Assembly: GCA_016209685.1 (NCBI GenBank) | Contig: JACQVQ010000008.1 | Location: 255,778 to 319,777, forward strand | Direction of reading: 5' to 3' | Source of the DNA: Planctomycetota bacterium | Lineage (GTDB): Bacteria; Planctomycetota; Brocadiia; Brocadiales; Bathyanammoxibiaceae | Length of the DNA stretch: 64,000 nt | Shown: positions 47,577 through 59,170 of the stretch, piece after piece | Layout: each line of letters opens with the position of its first letter | Position numbering within the stretch: position 1 is the stretch's first letter | The notes under the pieces: model-generated | Told to the model about the DNA's origin: nothing | The model's database searches: none | The model's input: the letters and a program-made list of their open reading frames with translations, nothing else | Translations under genes and position numbers: made by a program

Positions 47577-48029
47577 ATGCCCAGGAATTTTAGTTGGCTC
47601 CTCCCCGATGAGATAGCAGGTATGGCAAGGCCCGCCTCCGCCGTGCCAGACTTTGAGTTCCTGAGGGAATTGGGCATAGATGCCATCGTCTCGCTCACCG
47701 AATATCCCCTACAAAAGGCGTTCATAGAAGAGTTTGGCTTTGAGTATAAACACGTCCCCGTAGAAGACCTTACCGCCCCCTCCCTGGAACAGATAGACGA
47801 ATTCGTGAGGTTTGCCACAAAGGTCTGTGGAGGAGGCAAGAAACTGGTGGTCCATTGCGGGGCAGGTATAGGCAGGACGGGTACCATGCTGGCCTGCTAT
47901 CTGGTGCACAAGGGTTACTCGGCCCGGCGGGCCATTGCAGAGGTCAGACGCAAGAGGCCAGGCTCCATTGAGACCCCCGAACAGGAAGAGATAATAGCCC
48001 TATACGAGAAAAAGAAGTTGAAGGGCTAA
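47577..48029 (+). CDS. Dual-specificity/tyrosine phosphatase-like protein
   Basis: VVHCGAGIGRTGTM CX5R motif. Confidence 0.93.
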   Translation: MPRNFSWLLPDEIAGMARPASAVPDFEFLRELGIDAIVSLTEYPLQKAFIEEFGFEYKHVPVEDLTAPSLEQIDEFVRFATKVCGGGKKLVVHCGAGIGRTGTMLACYLVHKGYSARRAIAEVRRKRPGSIETPEQEEIIALYEKKKLKG

Positions 48030-48084
48030 ATCCTTGTCCCGGTCTTCTTAAACTCCTTTTCGCTATAGAGTATCACGTAATCCT
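48027..48084 (-). repeat. Truncated direct copy of the ahbB 3' end (cassette 1 tail)
   Basis: 54/58 identical to 48575-48632; encodes DYVILYSEKEFKKTGTRI*. Confidence 0.95.
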
Positions 48085-48116
48085 CCCCCATCCTTCTTTA
48101 ATGGAAAAGTGCATAG

Positions 48117-48332
48117 CTATAAAGCATTAAACTCTTCTACAGTCAAACCTGCTTGACGTACAAGCTTTCTAAGGAGGCCTGGCCCTAATTCTCTGTGTTG
48201 CGGTATAGAAAGCGTGTACTCATAGTTCGGTTTTGTCATCATTACATGCGATCCCTTTTGCCTTGATACTGTCCAACCTGCCTTTTGAAGTTTCTTCACT
48301 GCCTCCTGTCCAGAGCACAGCTTAAGCGGCAT
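48117..48332 (-). CDS. hicA: HicA-like mRNA interferase toxin
   Basis: AVKKLQKAGWTVSRQKGSHVMMTKP...IPQHRELGPGLLRKLVRQAGLTVEEF. Confidence 0.92.
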   Translation of the reverse strand: MPLKLCSGQEAVKKLQKAGWTVSRQKGSHVMMTKPNYEYTLSIPQHRELGPGLLRKLVRQAGLTVEEFNAL

Positions 48333-48532
48333 TACACGATGACCTCAATCACCTTGGCTTGGTCAAAGGTATATTTTGATTCCATTACCTCTAGCCAACC
48401 CTCAATGGCCTCTTTAATATTCTCCAGGGTCTCTTCTTTTGTCTTACCCTGGGATAAGCACCCTGGCAAGGCAGGCACTTCGGCTACATAGTATCCAGCC
48501 TCATCCTTCTCAACTATCACGTGCAGTTTCAT
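48332..48532 (-). CDS. hicB: HicB-like antitoxin (short form)
   Basis: GYYVAEVPALPGCLSQGKTKEETLENIKEAIEGWL. Confidence 0.92.
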   Translation of the reverse strand: MKLHVIVEKDEAGYYVAEVPALPGCLSQGKTKEETLENIKEAIEGWLEVMESKYTFDQAKVIEVIV

Positions 48533-48573
48533 ATTTCTAGGTATTTACGAATGGTTACAGGGATTTGGAGAAT

Positions 48574-49065
48574 TTAAATCCTCGTCCCCGTCTTCTTAAA
48601 CTCCTTTTCGCTGTAGAGTATCACGTAGTCCTTCACACCTGTCTTCTCCTGCATCTCCTCTATAACCCTCTCACATTCCCCGTCGGCGTAGCCGTGAATC
48701 ATCGTGAATAGGTTATAAGGCCAGTCAGGGAAAGTGGGGCGTTCATAACAGTGTGTAACCTCCGGGAAGCCAGCCATAACCTTGCCCACCGCCTCTACCC
48801 TATCTGAGGGCACCCTCCAGACGCACATGGCGTTAGAGTTTATGCCTATCTTGCGGTGTGCCACGCTGGCCGCAAACCGCCTGACCTTTTTTGTCTCAAG
48901 GAGACCTTTTATACGGCTGATGACCTCCTCCTCCGTCATCCCCAGTGCCTCCCCTATCTCTTTATAGGGCCTTTCCACCAGTGGGATGCCGTCCTGTATG
49001 TGCTTCAGGAGTTTGATATCTACCTGGTCTGTCGTTTTAGAGGTCACTACCTTTTCTATATTCAT
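48574..49065 (-). CDS. Siroheme decarboxylase AhbB-like (Lrp/AsnC-type)
   Basis: Lrp-like HTH plus ACWPNL-type core; paired with AhbA-like gene. Confidence 0.85.
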   Translation of the reverse strand: MNIEKVVTSKTTDQVDIKLLKHIQDGIPLVERPYKEIGEALGMTEEEVISRIKGLLETKKVRRFAASVAHRKIGINSNAMCVWRVPSDRVEAVGKVMAGFPEVTHCYERPTFPDWPYNLFTMIHGYADGECERVIEEMQEKTGVKDYVILYSEKEFKKTGTRI

Positions 49066-50341: not shown

Positions 50342-50495
50342 AAGTCATAATTGTACGCCTAGAATTCCTCTCTTGTCAAATAAATCTTTTACTGCCCGAA
50401 ATTCCTTGATTTTTCTATGTCATGTGGTATCTTCAGGAAAGGCCACGGGTGGGACTGAGGGGTGCCGCCAGGGGCAGGGGATCTCTGAAGAAGGG

Positions 50496-50579
50496 GAAGT
50501 AAGCATGATAATGAGCGTAGTACATCGGAAAGGTGGGGAAGTAGGTATGATAGTGAGTGTGGTACATCAGAAGGGTGGG
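50496..50579 (+). repeat. 42-bp in-frame tandem duplication at the ParA N-terminus
   Basis: EVSMIMSVVHRKGG / EVGMIVSVVHQKGG. Confidence 0.92.
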
Positions 50580-51338
50580 GTGGGGAAGACTACTACCAGC
50601 ATCAATCTTGCCAGTGCCCTGGTCTTAAACAATAAGAGGGTATTGCTTGTAGACATGGACCCCCAGGCCCACTCCACAAAGGGTCTTGGGGTGGAGCTGG
50701 AGGATTCCAATCCATCCGTAAAGGACATAATGCTCAAAGAGGCCACTTCCCTCTTTGCCCAGTATTGGGCGGGCGACATCCATGAGGTCATCCGCAAGAG
50801 TCCCAGGGAGGGGCTTGACCTGGTACCTGCCGAGATAAGGCTCTCGCAGGCCCTTGAGGAGTTATATGGACGCTGTAGCAAGAATTTCCGCGAGTCCATA
50901 CTGTCTAAGAGCCTCCTTCCTGTTATAGACTACTATGATTATGTGATTATTGACTGTCCCCCGGGCCTGGGGTTACTGGCAGTGAACGCCATTAAGGCCT
51001 CCCAGTTCATACTCATCCCTAGCATCATGTCCAAGCTCTCCGTTGATAGCATCACCGACCTCTTGAACCTGGTCAAGAGGGCAAAGGGTACTGCCTTTGA
51101 AGACTACCGCATCCTCCCGACCCTTGTGGACACCAGGCTCAGGGCCACTAATGAGTATGTCATTGAAGAACTCTCCACCCACAAGGGCAAGGTCCTCCGT
51201 ACTCAGATTGCCAGGAATGAGACCATAAACCAGGCACAGATTACCCATCAGGACATCTTTGCCTTCGCCCCAGGTTCCAGGGGTGCCGAGGACTATGCCA
51301 AACTGGCCAAAGAACTCCTGAAACTCTGGGAGGAATAA
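50505..51338 (+). CDS. ParA/Soj-family ATPase (ORF open from 50373)
   Basis: VVHQKGGVGKTTTSINLASAL, DMDPQAH, IIDCPPGLG. Confidence 0.92.
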   Translation: MIMSVVHRKGGEVGMIVSVVHQKGGVGKTTTSINLASALVLNNKRVLLVDMDPQAHSTKGLGVELEDSNPSVKDIMLKEATSLFAQYWAGDIHEVIRKSPREGLDLVPAEIRLSQALEELYGRCSKNFRESILSKSLLPVIDYYDYVIIDCPPGLGLLAVNAIKASQFILIPSIMSKLSVDSITDLLNLVKRAKGTAFEDYRILPTLVDTRLRATNEYVIEELSTHKGKVLRTQIARNETINQAQITHQDIFAFAPGSRGAEDYAKLAKELLKLWEE

Positions 51339-51377
51339 AATCCCCCCCCTTCTACACACCTTTGCGCACGTGTAGCC

Positions 51378-51689
51378 ATGAATAAAAGTGCAAAGATGAC
51401 AAAAGAGGACATCAAGAAGACCTTATCAACTAACAGGGAAATCCTTAAGAAATACAAGGTAAGGTCCCTTGCGCTCTTTGGCTCCTACGTGCGAAATGAG
51501 CAAAGAGAGGATAGTGACATAGACTTTCTGGTGGAGTTTGATGACCCTACATATGATAACTTCATAAATCTGGTCTTTGCCTTGGAAGATTTGTTTCAAA
51601 AGAAGGTAAACCTAATTCCTGAAGGAGGATTAAGCCCTTACATCGCCCCTTATGTAAGGCAGGAGATGGAAAAGATTGAGGCAGGATAG
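51378..51689 (+). CDS. MntA-like minimal nucleotidyltransferase antitoxin
   Basis: LALFGSYVRNEQREDSDIDFLVEF = GSX10DXD. Confidence 0.93.
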   Translation: MNKSAKMTKEDIKKTLSTNREILKKYKVRSLALFGSYVRNEQREDSDIDFLVEFDDPTYDNFINLVFALEDLFQKKVNLIPEGGLSPYIAPYVRQEMEKIEAG

Positions 51690-52014
51690 GGTCTTTTTGA
51701 AGCACATACTTGACGAAATAAATTTCTTATTAGACAAAACAAAGGGGCTAGAATATGAAAGTTTAATAAGAGATGAGACCTTGAAACGGGCGTTCTTGAG
51801 AAGTCTGGAGATAATAGGGGAGGCTGCTAAGAACATTTCAGTTGATTTCAGGAATAGTCATCCCGAGGTTAAATGGAGATAGATGGCAGGTTTGAGGGAT
51901 AAACTTATACACGCATACTTTGGAGTAAAATGGGAGGTCATTTGGGACGTAATAAAGAACTTCATCCCAAAACTTAGAGGACAAATAGAAACACTCTTAC
52001 TCAAGGCAGAGTAA
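51676..52014 (+). pseudogene. HepT-like HEPN (DUF86) toxin interrupted by in-frame TAG at 51880-51882
   Basis: 51676-51882 then in-frame MAGLRDKLIHAYFGVKWEVIWDVIKNFIPKLRGQIETLLLKAE; RX4H (RDKLIH) lies after the stop. Confidence 0.85.
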
Positions 52015-52054
52015 AACCTATGGAGGTTATGCACGCTCAGTATCCCAAATATTT

Positions 52055-52120
52055 AGGCTGTTGTCCAAGGGGTTTTAGATGTCCAATACGACAGCACTGC
52101 ATAGGGTTTGGCAACAGCCT
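52055..52120. repeat. Inverted repeat AGGCTGTTGTCCAA ... TTGGCAACAGCCT just before the parA-tail copy
   Basis: Arms 52055-52068 and 52108-52120. Confidence 0.8.
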
Positions 52121-52130
52121 CTATTGCTTT

Positions 52131-52228
52131 TTGCCCACCAGGACATCTTAGCCTTTGCCCCGGGTTCCAGGGGTGCCGAGGACTATGCCAAACTGGCCAA
52201 AGAACTACTGAAACTATGGGAGGAGTAA
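52131..52228 (+). repeat. Truncated direct copy of the parA 3' end (cassette 2 tail)
   Basis: Aligns at +890 with 51241-51338; AHQDILAFAPGSRGAEDYAKLAKELLKLWEE*. Confidence 0.97.
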
Positions 52229-52407
52229 TCTCTCCATCCCAGTCTCATGGTAACGGGCCCTTTCGGTATTTTCTGCCAGCACAGTTTCTTTGTAGAGTAT
52301 ACAAACATGGGTTATGCTTTTTAGTCTAAACCTTACTAGGGATGTAAGGGGGCTTTGCCCCCAGTGCCAGAGGCAGATCCTCCTCAGGCGTACTCACCAC
52401 AAAGTCT

Positions 52408-53629: not shown

Positions 53630-56359
53630 ATGCTTATAAAAAGGCGACTGATAATCCTTACCGTCCTGCCAGTGGTACTCTCCACCCTGGCCATCTCTGT
53701 GGCGCTGGTCTGGACGAGCCAGGGCCTCCTGTTCAAAAAGGATTATGATTACCAAAAATCTCTGGCAGACGTGTTGGCCCATAATTTTTATGAGGCCCAT
53801 TTCGGCCATATAAGAGGTGCACTCCTCCACGAAGGGCATTTCTTCAGACTGATTCCGGAGGCTGGTTATCAGGCCCTCACCCTTACTCAGCAAGAACGGC
53901 ACATGAAGGAACTGGTAGAGCAGACACCTTATCTCACACAGCTTATAGTACTTGATACAAGCGGCCGGCAGGAGATTAAGCTGGTCAGGATAGATAGTGA
54001 GGTGGTATCCGAGCGGGACTTTACTAACGAGGCTGGGGACAAGGGGTTTACTGTGGCCATGAAGGACAGGGCCTACGTAAGCCCTGTCTTTATATGGCAG
54101 GCCGCCAACCATGTAGAGATAGCTGTCCCACTAAAGGATACCCTCGGTAATGTTATAAAGGTCTTAAAGGGCAGGGTGAACCTGGAGAGGATGTGGCAAG
54201 AAGGAGTCTTAAAGGACTCACCGAGGGGCCTTACTTGCTATCTGGTGGATAATCACGGGAACATCATTGCCCACCCGGAGCGTTCCGTTACGCACCAGGG
54301 CCCGGGAATAAACGTCAGCCACCTCCCACTTATACAGGATTTCCTCTCTGGTGTGCCTTGTCGTTATAAGGGGAGAGTTGTTTACGAGACATTTACAGGT
54401 ATAAAGGTAGTGGGCGTTTATGCCACCGTACCCAAGATGGGTTGGGCAGTAGTACTGGAGCGACCAGCAACAGAGGTTTATAAGCCACTGTATACCATAC
54501 TTGCCATTGGGTTGTGTGTAACCATGGCCTCCCTGGCTGGATTCTTGTCCTGGGGTGTGCTCTCCGCTAGGGAGATTGCCAGTTCAATGAAAGACCTCCA
54601 GGAGGGGGCCGGTAAGATAGGTAGTGGGGAGGTGGGCTACAGGCTAAAAGTAAGGACCAGGGATGAATACGGTCAACTGGCTGAGGGATTTAATCGCATG
54701 GCAGACCTCCTGGAAGGACGTAACAGAGAGGTCCACCAGGCAAACAGGGAGATGCAGTCCCTCCTTAATACCTTTACCACCCTGGTACAGGCAGTCAGCC
54801 ATTCAGGTTCTATGGAGGAGATACTCCTGACCACCCTAAGAAAGGCCATAGAAATCACAGACACCATTGGTGGAGAGGTATTTCTCCTGGTTGAAGAATT
54901 GCAAGAAATGGTGCCACTAATCTATGAGGGACTGGATAAGGACTTCTTCCTTGCTACCGAGTCTCTGCATTTCAAGAAGGGGGTGTGCCTTCCAGGGATG
55001 GTCTATGAAAAGGGGGAGGCGGTTTGCATTGAAGACCTTGCGGAGTGTCCTTATTTTTACAGGAAAGGGATAGCCAGTGAGAAGAGTTATGTCTCTGCCG
55101 TTTACGTCCCTTTAAGGGCGAGGGAAAAGATATACGGGTGTATGGGAGTTATCAGTAAGGAGCGACGCCATTACAGCCCAGGTGTAGTAAGTACCCTTGA
55201 GGTAATGTGCACCATTGCCGCCTCCTTTCTGGAGGGTGCCCGTAACTATCGGGCGCTGGAGGAGAAGACCCAGGAGTCGAGCAGGAAGGTGGAAACCCTC
55301 CGGGTGATGACGGAGATAGACCGTAGTATATTATTGAAGATTGATAACCTTGACGAACTCTTTGAGGGTGTCACGCACCTTATTAAACGGCTTATACCAT
55401 GTGACAGGGTTACTATGGTAGCGGTGGATAAAGTACAGGGTGGATTTATTTATCGCTACGGTTGGGGCACAAGTGTAAGGAAGAAGGGTGATTTCGTGCC
55501 GTTTGAACACACCAACGCAACGGAGGCAGTCAGGGAAAAGAGGTCCATACTGAGGAATGATATAAGACTGGTAAAGGAACTCCTGCCCCTGGATAAACAG
55601 TTCGTGGGGGAGGGATTTCTCTCAGACCTGAGGGTCCCCATCATACTGGGAAATGAGGTGATTGCCCTCCTTAACATAGGTAGTAAGCGAGTGGCTGGGT
55701 TCCGCACGGAGGATGCCTCTATCGCTGAGGGGGTAGCCAACCAACTGGCCGTGGCCCTCTCCCATGCGAGGCTAATCCAGAGGTTGAAGGGCTCTCTGCT
55801 TGACACCGTAAGGTGTCTCTCCGAGGCCATTGATGCCAAGTCTCCCTGGACCAGGGGTCACAGCGAGAGGGTTGCCGGGCTATCCTGTGACATAGCCAGA
55901 GAGCTTGGTCTTGAGGAGGAAGATATAGAACGGATAAGGATGGCATCCCTCCTCCACGACGTTGGGAAGATAGGGACTTATGAGGGAGTACTGGATAAGC
56001 CAGGTAAACTCACCGCCGCGGAGTGGGATATGGTAAAGAGGCATTGTGCGGAGGGCGTCAAGATAATTAGTCCTGTAGAGAGATTCAATGAACTGATACC
56101 GATGGTACTTTATCACCACGAACGTTACGACGGTAAAGGTTATCCTGAGGGTAAAAAGGGGGAAGAAATACCCCTGGGGGCGAGGATTATATGCATAGCC
56201 GATGCTGTGGATGCCATGACCAGCGAGAGGCCCTACCGCAAGGCCAAACCCATGGAAGAGGTAGTGGAGGAGTTAAGAAAGAATGCAGGCGTCCAGTTTT
56301 GTCCGAAGGTGGCGGAGGCTACGTTAAAGGTGCTGGAGAGGCAGAGGGCTAAGGGGTAA
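53630..56359 (+). CDS. Membrane sensor (Cache-HAMP-GAF-GAF) with HD-GYP phosphodiesterase domain
   Basis: HDVGKIG, HHERYDGKGYP; HAMP after second TM; two GAF-like regions. Confidence 0.93.
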   Translation: MLIKRRLIILTVLPVVLSTLAISVALVWTSQGLLFKKDYDYQKSLADVLAHNFYEAHFGHIRGALLHEGHFFRLIPEAGYQALTLTQQERHMKELVEQTPYLTQLIVLDTSGRQEIKLVRIDSEVVSERDFTNEAGDKGFTVAMKDRAYVSPVFIWQAANHVEIAVPLKDTLGNVIKVLKGRVNLERMWQEGVLKDSPRGLTCYLVDNHGNIIAHPERSVTHQGPGINVSHLPLIQDFLSGVPCRYKGRVVYETFTGIKVVGVYATVPKMGWAVVLERPATEVYKPLYTILAIGLCVTMASLAGFLSWGVLSAREIASSMKDLQEGAGKIGSGEVGYRLKVRTRDEYGQLAEGFNRMADLLEGRNREVHQANREMQSLLNTFTTLVQAVSHSGSMEEILLTTLRKAIEITDTIGGEVFLLVEELQEMVPLIYEGLDKDFFLATESLHFKKGVCLPGMVYEKGEAVCIEDLAECPYFYRKGIASEKSYVSAVYVPLRAREKIYGCMGVISKERRHYSPGVVSTLEVMCTIAASFLEGARNYRALEEKTQESSRKVETLRVMTEIDRSILLKIDNLDELFEGVTHLIKRLIPCDRVTMVAVDKVQGGFIYRYGWGTSVRKKGDFVPFEHTNATEAVREKRSILRNDIRLVKELLPLDKQFVGEGFLSDLRVPIILGNEVIALLNIGSKRVAGFRTEDASIAEGVANQLAVALSHARLIQRLKGSLLDTVRCLSEAIDAKSPWTRGHSERVAGLSCDIARELGLEEEDIERIRMASLLHDVGKIGTYEGVLDKPGKLTAAEWDMVKRHCAEGVKIISPVERFNELIPMVLYHHERYDGKGYPEGKKGEEIPLGARIICIADAVDAMTSERPYRKAKPMEEVVEELRKNAGVQFCPKVAEATLKVLERQRAKG

Positions 56360-56360
56360 A

Positions 56361-56379
56361 TGGTGGGCGCTGGTGGACT
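56361..56379 (-). repeat. 19-bp direct copy of the tRNA-Val 3' end (cassette 3 tail)
   Basis: TGGTGGGCGCTGGTGGACT identical to 56938-56956. Confidence 0.93.
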
Positions 56380-56415
56380 TGCCCCTTCACCTCCTTGCTT
56401 AGTCCCTTCGTAATA

Positions 56416-56682
56416 TTAGCGGGAAGGCAAAATTTCTACGTTCACACGGTATCCTAAGTGAGTAAGATAATTTGAACAGTCTTCCCACGTTAATCCAAAG
56501 GCGCGTACATCAGCAAGTCCCAGGCGACTAACGATGTCTCGGAGCATCTCAAAGTCAGGCTCGTCGAAATTACCTTCTTGCATCGCCTCCTCTGCCCAGT
56601 CTACTAGTTCTGATAGGGTCAACCGCTGGTGTAGATAATCCTCCAATTTGCGGGCCACATCTTCACGTTTAATAACCATCAT
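56416..56682 (-). CDS. Hypothetical 88-aa protein, TA-like pair member
   Basis: ORF overlapping the upstream small ORF by 4 nt. Confidence 0.7.
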   Translation of the reverse strand: MMVIKREDVARKLEDYLHQRLTLSELVDWAEEAMQEGNFDEPDFEMLRDIVSRLGLADVRAFGLTWEDCSNYLTHLGYRVNVEILPSR

Positions 56683-56933
56683 CTTTCCTTTCTTAGATGC
56701 TGGTGCCCAGCATCTACTGGAAACTTATGATGTACCTCTACAACTTTTCCTTCTTCGTTATAAATCTCTTGATAGAAGCGTACAGTTCTTTCGTTTAAAT
56801 CCACTTCTTTAATGTAACGTGCTATGCATCCAGAACGACTAACAACCTCATACCAGTAACGGCGGCCTCCATCAGGAAGTTCTTCCCATGAGCCAAATTT
56901 TCTTTCATTTTGATGTCGTTTAGGTATATCCAT
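56679..56933 (-). CDS. Hypothetical 84-aa protein, TA-like pair member (start revised out of tRNA-Val)
   Basis: MDIPKRHQNERKFGSWEELPDGGRRYWYEVVSRSGCIARYIKEVD... Confidence 0.7.
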   Translation of the reverse strand: MDIPKRHQNERKFGSWEELPDGGRRYWYEVVSRSGCIARYIKEVDLNERTVRFYQEIYNEEGKVVEVHHKFPVDAGHQHLRKER

Positions 56934-56937
56934 ACAA

Positions 56938-57013
56938 TGGTGGGCGCTGGTGGACTCGAACCACCGACCCCTTCCTTGTGAAGGAAGTGCTCTAGCCTCT
57001 GAGCCAAGCGCCC
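56938..57013 (-). tRNA. tRNA-Val (CAC)
   Basis: Acceptor GGGCGCT/AGCGCCC, anticodon loop TTCACAA, encoded CCA. Confidence 0.95.
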
Positions 57014-57078: not shown

Positions 57079-57107
57079 GTAGGGGCGACCCGCCGGGTCG
57101 CCCCTAC
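57079..57107. repeat. GTAG-type REP GTAGGGGCGACCCGCCGGGTCGCCCCTAC
   Basis: Near-perfect palindrome. Confidence 0.95.
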
Positions 57108-58624: not shown

Positions 58625-58864
58625 CTATACTTTATCCAACAACTCAAAATACCTTTCACGGCCGATACCCGCGGTAGTAAGGTTTGTACGAATATGTGCA
58701 ACTGGGACTAATCGTGGGCTGGTCTTAATGACAAGGGGGCGGCGAATGCCCGATTTAGTCATACTAATATGGTCTCCCTTCTGGCGGCGCACTTTAAAGC
58801 CCTCTAATTCAAAGATTTTAATGAGTTTCTTGTAATGAATAGAAACAATCTTGCCTTGTGTCAT
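58625..58864 (-). CDS. HicA-like toxin
   Basis: YKKLIKIFELEGFKVRRQKGDHISMTKSG. Confidence 0.85.
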   Translation of the reverse strand: MTQGKIVSIHYKKLIKIFELEGFKVRRQKGDHISMTKSGIRRPLVIKTSPRLVPVAHIRTNLTTAGIGRERYFELLDKV

Positions 58865-58876
58865 ATAAAAGCTAAG

Positions 58877-59170
58877 CTACAAAGTTGCCCGCTCTGTCAA
58901 GACAAGTTTTCTAAACTTCCAATGAGATAGCCTGCCTGGGTCAGGAGTAAATCCTGCCTCTGAGAGCACCTCGCACAAAGTCCCCATGCTATCACACTCT
59001 TCAAGAAAAAGTTCAATAGCCTCTTTTAATGACCTTTTAGCCTCCTCTATAGAGTCTCCAAAACTAGATACATTAAGTTCTGGACAAAGGGCTACGTATT
59101 GCCCCTCTTCTTCAAAGACCTCCATACGATATTCAAGATGGATATTCATTTGTGTACCCCTTTTTCTCAA
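58877..59170 (-). CDS. HicB-like antitoxin
   Basis: EEEGQYVALCPELNVSSFGDSIEEAKRSLKEAIELFLEEC. Confidence 0.85.
   Translation of the reverse strand: MRKRGTQMNIHLEYRMEVFEEEGQYVALCPELNVSSFGDSIEEAKRSLKEAIELFLEECDSMGTLCEVLSEAGFTPDPGRLSHWKFRKLVLTERATL

What the first reader, a model, noticed from the sequence alone, without database searches (positions are those of the whole stretch)
56361..56956. Cassette 3: unrecognised gene pair bounded by tRNA-Val and a 19-bp copy of its 3' end
TGGTGGGCGCTGGTGGACT occurs at the tRNA-Val 3' end (56938-56956) and again at 56361-56379 in the same orientation. This is the half-T-arm-to-CCA segment typical of att sites. The intervening ~560 bp holds only two small ORFs and no recombinase.
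Basis: partly seen in the sequence, partly recalled or inferred. Interest (0 to 1): 0.75.

Follow-up and report, generated by a model that had tools for sequence, protein, structure and literature searches.

The report
Integrase-less toxin-antitoxin-like cassette behind tRNA-Val
A 0.58-kb insert behind a valine tRNA gene carries an undescribed two-gene module that looks like a toxin-antitoxin pair, its far end marked by the displaced end of the tRNA; at least eight similar repeat-bounded toxin-antitoxin-type inserts, mostly behind other genes, sit in the two contigs sampled, which suggests a recurrent way for such genes to move without a recombinase of their own.

Summary
In detail: TGGTGGGCGCTGGTGGACT occurs twice in the window, at the 3' end of tRNA-Val(CAC) and 577 bp away (0.01 expected). 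In relatives the far copy is longer and runs from the anticodon loop to CCA, so it is a decayed, displaced tRNA 3' half. Other Brocadiales carry the same displaced half. In two of them tyrosine-integrase genes or relics run into the same tRNA, one in a 12-kb island. The insert has no integrase, and the genome shows only one PF00589 gene.

The cargo is P1-P2, an unnamed gene pair found together in many phyla. P2 also sits next to known toxin-antitoxin-type families. P1 decays or is lost; P2 stays. Both genes are under purifying selection, but synonymous divergence from sister species is 3-5 times that of the flanks, so the cassette was exchanged at this site.

Unexpectedly, the sampled 0.84 Mb of this genome holds at least eight other repeat-bounded units. 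All carry toxin-antitoxin-type genes. In six they sit behind another gene whose 3' end is duplicated.

Verdict: a real, eroded or minimal tRNA island with an undescribed toxin-antitoxin-like module. New variant of a known kind. The entry mechanism (integrase or homology-driven insertion) and the toxin function are unproven.

The parts
56938..57013 (-). tRNA-Val(CAC), intact; target gene
   Evidence: ARAGORN
56938..56956 (-). proximal repeat copy = 3' end of tRNA-Val including CCA
56361..56379 (-). distal repeat copy = displaced tRNA-Val 3' end (exact match 56359-56379)
56380..56400 (-). decayed continuation of the displaced tRNA half; keeps AAGCAAGG, which is the state of the G006 tRNA, not of this genome's own tRNA
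   Evidence: alignment
56679..56933 (-). P1 (P0001), 84 aa; first gene; ATG 4 nt after the tRNA CCA; candidate toxin; predicted N-terminal helix plus antiparallel beta sheet
   Evidence: dN/dS about 0.1
56416..56682 (-). P2 (P0002), 88 aa; overlaps P1 by 4 nt; candidate antitoxin; predicted four helices
   Evidence: dN/dS about 0.1
57079..57107 (-). terminator-like hairpin ending the upstream unit, so tRNA-Val and P1-P2 probably share one transcript
53630..56359 (+). HD-GYP-type gene on the far side of the displaced fragment (convergent); conserved flank in the sister species
48027..48632 (-). parallel unit: HicA (48117-48332) and HicB (48332-48532) behind an Lrp/AsnC-like gene (48574-49065) whose last 58 bp are duplicated at 48027-48084
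   Evidence: gene names from sequence, not HMM-tested
51241..52235 (+). parallel unit: MNT (51378-51689) and HepT (51676-52014, interrupted by a stop) behind a ParA-like gene (50373-51338) whose last 98-105 bp are duplicated at 52131-52235

Best explanation
The insert is a very small mobile cassette, or the eroded remnant of a larger island, that entered at the tRNA-Val(CAC) attachment site. Recombination near the anticodon loop gave the tRNA gene an incoming 3' half and left the native 3' half as the distal copy. The cargo is a two-gene module (P1 then P2) that most likely works as a toxin-antitoxin pair, P1 toxin and P2 antitoxin. It is probably read from the tRNA-Val promoter and translated from a nearly leaderless message that starts just after the tRNA is cut away. 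The genome no longer carries an obvious cognate integrase, so the cassette is now fixed and kept by selection on the pair, although it was swapped at least once within the genus. Shown: displaced half, shared site, conserved pair, purifying selection, exchange. Inferred: integrase entry, tRNA co-transcription, toxin and antitoxin roles.
For: Displaced tRNA halves start at nt 28-37 in unrelated inserts across the order. Integrase genes or relics converge on the same tRNA in G049 and G046. Other cargo sits at the same site in G004 (membrane protein) and G006 (P1 relic plus RelB/RelE-like relics). Insert GC is 43.7% against 52.2%. Between the window and its sisters, synonymous divergence is 0.80-1.20 in the pair but 0.17-0.32 in four flanking genes (Fisher p 3e-14), and the divergent stretch ends at the repeats. 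dN/dS is about 0.1 for both genes. P2 changes partner: DUF2283, PIN, DUF2442, DUF4926, MqsA antitoxin, HTH_37. In 395 genomes P2 is intact in 15 of 15 copies, while P1 is broken or missing in 6, and P1 without P2 occurs only as one fragment.
Against: No integrase lies in the insert. The single PF00589 gene in the genome is 33 kb away and resembles the top hit in every relative, so it may be Xer-like. The sampled part of this genome has TA-type inserts with the same architecture behind protein genes, where a tRNA integrase cannot be the cause. An empty site with both native flanks was not found; contigs end too early. The site was rearranged in the sisters, where a RelB-ParE module and a second full tRNA-Val were added. 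P1 and P2 have no significant relative of known structure. The toxin-decay asymmetry rests on 15 copies (p 0.017).
Confidence: 0.55

Rival explanations
1. Insertion without any integrase: a circular or broken DNA carrying the donor's own gene end plus a toxin-antitoxin module recombined with the homologous gene end of the recipient (single crossover). This restores the gene with donor sequence and leaves the native end behind the module. tRNA-Val is then one of many targets.
For: In 841 kb of this genome at least nine repeat-bounded units carry TA-type genes: HicBA behind Lrp, MNT/HepT behind ParA, TldD-like and a second TldD-like gene, MNT/HEPN behind HisA, HicAB behind tRNA-Pro, P1-P2 behind tRNA-Val, UPF0150 (HicB-like) at a gene start, DUF4258/DUF2283 before MiaB. 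Repeats at Lrp, ParA and one TldD-like gene end exactly at the stop codon. Of 12 differences between the copies at Lrp and ParA, 10 are synonymous, as expected if both copies came from working genes (read). Small ORF pairs are flanked in 5 of 53 cases against 0.37% of random intervals (p 2e-6). P1-P2 elsewhere is flanked by unrelated repeats in 5 of 55 loci against 0.57%.
Against: At tRNA-Val the displaced piece starts near the anticodon loop in unrelated inserts, and integrases lie next to it in two relatives, as for site-specific recombination. The nine units were partly picked after seeing the pattern.
Confidence: 0.35
2. The pair arrived in the window and in the sister species by ordinary replacement through flanking homology; the tRNA remnant is an old island scar with no part in moving P1-P2.
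For: Synonymous divergence shows replacement. Sister species carry a second tRNA-Val and a RelB-ParE module, and G001 keeps a 5' piece of the old tRNA, so larger rearrangement happened.
Against: The divergent stretch stops at the tRNA end and at the displaced fragment, not inside the flanking genes. A P1 relic directly follows tRNA-Val in another genus.
Confidence: 0.08
3. Integron gene cassette.
For: Small promoterless cargo of TA type.
Against: An attC-like pattern was found at only 1 of 80 P2 loci, and repeats differ from locus to locus.
Confidence: 0.01
4. Chance repeat with no biological origin.
For: Only 19-21 bp in this genome.
Against: 0.01 matches expected; longer repeats of the same tRNA end in the sister species.
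Confidence: 0.01

Closest known systems
tRNA-targeted genomic islands as mapped by Islander (PMC4383910)
   Same: Intact tRNA gene, same-direction displaced 3' fragment, crossover near the anticodon loop, foreign cargo, integrases at the same tRNA in relatives
   Different: 0.58 kb and no integrase; Islander rejects candidates under 2 kb or without an integrase, so such units escape it
Type II toxin-antitoxin modules (HigBA-like gene order: toxin first)
   Same: Two small overlapping genes, patchy spread over phyla, partner swapping with PIN, DUF2283, MqsA and HTH_37 families, one partner decaying
   Different: Neither protein matches Pfam, NCBIfam or PADLOC; no significant structural relative; no activity shown
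ParDE-like module fenced by two identical 152-bp direct repeats behind MaOC1 in Microcystis (PMC7935541)
   Same: TA pair directly behind a gene, bounded by direct repeats, no recombinase mentioned in the passages read
   Different: There the repeat starts 14 bp after the stop codon and contains an inverted repeat; here the repeat is the target gene's own 3' end
Integron gene cassettes
   Same: Compact promoterless cargo
   Different: No attC, different repeat at each locus

Membership tests
tRNA genomic island (Islander definition) | intact tRNA gene plus displaced fragment in the same direction | tested here: met
tRNA genomic island (Islander definition) | integrase gene inside the island | tested here: not met
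tRNA genomic island (Islander definition) | length of at least 2 kb | tested here: not met
   577 bp; rule
tRNA genomic island (Islander definition) | the same attachment site used by integrase-bearing islands in relatives | tested here: met
tRNA genomic island (Islander definition) | horizontally acquired content | tested here: met
   dS contrast; GC
tRNA genomic island (Islander definition) | excision as a circle | not testable with these tools
   needs reads or PCR
type II toxin-antitoxin system | two small co-directional overlapping genes conserved as a pair | tested here: met
type II toxin-antitoxin system | member of a recognised toxin or antitoxin family | tested here: not met
type II toxin-antitoxin system | partner exchange with known TA families | tested here: met
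type II toxin-antitoxin system | antitoxin kept when toxin is lost | tested here: met
   small numbers
type II toxin-antitoxin system | P1 inhibits growth and P2 neutralises it | not testable with these tools
   needs expression assay
integron gene cassette | attC site | tested here: not met

The most novel reading that the evidence does not exclude
Toxin-antitoxin modules, including the undescribed P1-P2 family, move as sub-kilobase cassettes that carry the donor's copy of a gene end and insert by crossing over in that gene end, regenerating the target gene (tRNA or protein-coding) and leaving the native end behind. Gene ends then act as landing sites without a dedicated integrase, and the cassette can be expressed from the target's transcript.
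Probability: 0.3. Interest if true: 0.82.

Novelty: new variant of a known kind. Interest (0 to 1): 0.6.

Why it matters
How small toxin-antitoxin modules hop between genomes when they lie outside plasmids, phages and integrons is an open question. A signature that can be counted (module bounded by a duplicated gene end) makes it testable in any genome collection. Standard island finders drop such units because they require an integrase and at least 2 kb. The P1-P2 pair is a multi-phylum family with no name in Pfam or NCBIfam and is simple to test in a laboratory strain.

Tried and rejected
Chance repeat: rejected. Integron cassette: rejected, no attC. General linkage of P1-P2 to tRNA genes: rejected; among the 80 loci only the two sister species have it directly behind a tRNA 3' end. 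Plain vertical inheritance of the pair inside the genus: rejected by the dS contrast. Fold search of P1 and P2 against the PDB, and of P2 against viral models, gave nothing significant; weak helix-turn-helix antitoxin-like hits for P2 have E above 1. Viral-contig searches failed four times, so phage carriage is untested there; P1 was absent from the phage and plasmid collections and P2 from the plasmid collection. The search for an empty site through the HD-GYP flank failed because the best match is cut by a contig end. Repeat pairs at L190, L217 and window 4828 look like dispersed repeats and were not counted; L196, L200, L207, L208 and L197 were left undecided.

Full report
Observation. The 19-bp sequence is present twice, in direct orientation, 577 bp apart, and nowhere else in the window even with three mismatches. 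One copy is the 3' end of tRNA-Val(CAC), minus strand 56938-57013. Between the copies lie two minus-strand ORFs, P1 (56679-56933, 84 aa) and P2 (56416-56682, 88 aa), overlapping by four bases. The start codon of P1 is 4 nt after the tRNA CCA (3 nt in sister species G001).

The genome. The window is C8:255778-319777 of a 2.02-Mb, 14-contig assembly. So this is an anammox-order lineage.

The distal copy is a displaced tRNA half. In both sisters the same arrangement exists. Their distal copies match about 40 bp of the tRNA from nt 37 to the end, at 95% and 90%, with small gaps or substitutions. G004 has a 616-bp insert with an unrelated 112-aa protein gene, and G006 has a 1.3-kb insert. G008 and G007 have displaced halves at contig ends. 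In the wider order, G049 has a fragment (nt 28-76) 12.3 kb from an intact tRNA-Val(CAC). In that island an integrase relic with Int_N and SAM-like domains runs into the tRNA. G046 has a PF00589 ORF overlapping the tRNA 3' end (E 9.5e-20). In the window the distal copy retains AAGCAAGG where the local tRNA has AAGGAAGG and the G006 tRNA has AAGCAAGG, as expected if the distal copy is the older native end.

The cargo. P1 and P2 match nothing in Pfam, NCBIfam or PADLOC, alone or as family alignments beyond isolated weak hits (PADLOC was searched with the window's two proteins only), and nothing convincing in PHROGs. One genome-contig scan with P2 returned 80 loci from Brocadiales, Scalindua, Verrucomicrobia, Beta- and Deltaproteobacteria, Nitrospirae, Chloroflexi, Moorella, Methanoperedens and others (some titles are binning labels). 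About 60 of the 80 have a P1 match in the same order upstream. By profile coverage, of 77 loci not at a contig edge, 41 P1 copies count as intact, 18 as partial and 18 as absent; L026 and L027, listed as partial by an artefact of the domain table, are in fact intact. Where P1 is missing, P2 sits behind DUF2283, PIN, DUF2442, DUF4926, MqsA-antitoxin or HTH_37 proteins. In 395 genomes of the phylum, P2 was intact at 15 of 15 places and P1 was broken or absent at six of them. P1 occurred without P2 only as one fragment. This asymmetry suggests P1 is the toxin and P2 the antitoxin, but numbers are small (p 0.017) and no activity is shown. AlphaFold models are confident (pLDDT 90.7 and 92.8) but have no significant structural match.

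Selection and exchange. dN/dS is 0.08-0.11 for both genes between the window and its sisters, so both are in use. Yet dS is 1.14-1.20 (P1) and 0.80-0.83 (P2), while four flanking genes on both sides have 0.17-0.32 (p 3e-14). Windowed identity is about 0.80 inside the insert and about 0.90 outside, changing at the tRNA end and at the displaced fragment. The cassette was therefore replaced, or inserted independently, after the species split. In the sisters a RelB-ParE module and a complete tRNA-Val lie in front of P1-P2, and G001 keeps a 17-19-nt 5' piece of the older tRNA. In G006 a stop-ridden P1 relic directly follows the tRNA. So the site has been reworked repeatedly.

A wider pattern. A scan of the window for exact repeats of 16 bp or more spaced 300-1600 bp gave four: one inside a TPR gene, the present one, and two others. 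One encloses HicA and HicB behind an Lrp-like gene; the other encloses MNT and HepT behind a ParA-like gene. Sampling contigs C8 and C11 (841 kb in all, window included) added HicAB behind tRNA-Pro(GGG) and MNT/HepT behind a TldD-like gene. It also added MNT/HEPN behind HisA, MNT/HepT behind a second TldD-like gene, a UPF0150 gene at the start of that gene, and a DUF4258/DUF2283 pair before a MiaB-like gene. Names such as Lrp, TldD, HisA and MiaB are my reading of the sequences; the TA-type families were HMM-tested except HicA and HicB at 48 kb, HicB behind tRNA-Pro, and the L182 MNT/HepT pair. Among 53 small co-directional ORF pairs, 5 are flanked by such repeats, against 0.37% of random intervals (p 2e-6). 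The criterion was set after seeing the first cases, so this needs an independent survey. P1-P2 in other genomes shows the same tendency: 5 of 55 against 0.57%, with one case behind a radical-SAM gene (L028, 13 bp) and one at a gene end (L048, 22 bp exact).

Mechanism. Two readings remain. For tRNA-Val the constant start of the displaced piece and the neighbouring integrases favour site-specific entry. The many protein-gene targets, the repeats that end at stop codons, and the mostly synonymous differences between the two copies at Lrp and ParA (10 of 12, read) favour incoming DNA that carried the donor's gene end and recombined with the recipient's. Both readings regenerate the target gene and displace the native end. 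A target-site duplication as made by a transposase would give copies identical at birth, and later differences would not be mainly synonymous.

Expression. No minus-strand promoter-like site was found between tRNA-Val and P1, and a terminator-like hairpin precedes the tRNA. With 3-4 nt between CCA and ATG there is no room for a ribosome-binding site outside the tRNA. I infer co-transcription with the tRNA and near-leaderless translation after processing; this is untested.

Known context. Islander defines the tRNA-plus-displaced-fragment signature but requires an integrase and 2-200 kb (PMC4383910). A TA module fenced by direct repeats behind a gene is described for Microcystis (PMC7935541), with an intergenic repeat. 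I found no paper describing duplicated gene ends around TA modules, but the library is partial and few searches were made.

Noticed in passing
window 48027-48632: HicA-HicB pair between an Lrp/AsnC-like gene and a 58-bp (93%) copy of that gene's 3' end; all four differences are synonymous and the copy ends at the stop codon.
   Followed up: partly
window 51241-52235: MNT-HepT pair (HepT interrupted by a stop near 51880) between a ParA-like gene and a 98-105 bp copy of its 3' end that ends at the stop codon.
   Followed up: partly
L198:12370-12995 (C11): tRNA-Pro(GGG) followed by HicA-HicB and a 34-bp displaced tRNA-Pro 3' end, then a RelB-like gene: a twin of the tRNA-Val unit.
   Followed up: partly
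L182:15618-16628; L209:10688-11653; L219:10042-11452: MNT-HepT or MNT-HEPN pairs behind TldD-like and HisA genes, each with a displaced copy of the gene end.
   Followed up: partly
L219:12587-13240; L210:1830-2522: TA-type genes (UPF0150; DUF4258 with DUF2283) inserted before a gene whose 5' end is duplicated (64 and 132 bp).
   Followed up: partly
L019:2660-3227 and L020:233-713: In the sister species a RelB-ParE module lies in front of tRNA-Val; G001 retains a 17-19 nt 5' piece of an older tRNA-Val upstream of it, so the working tRNA seems to have come with the insert.
   Followed up: partly
L155:2196-2351 (G008): tRNA-Val(GAC) is followed 44 bp later by a copy of its own 3' half (about 36 nt): a nearly empty or collapsed site.
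   Followed up: no
window 58628-59170: A HicA-HicB-like pair sits directly behind the asd gene with no flanking repeat detected; possibly an older insert whose repeat has decayed.
   Followed up: no
L068:655-5448: P1-P2 pair in a locus with about 170-bp repeats recurring between genes (4 copies), resembling an array.
   Followed up: no
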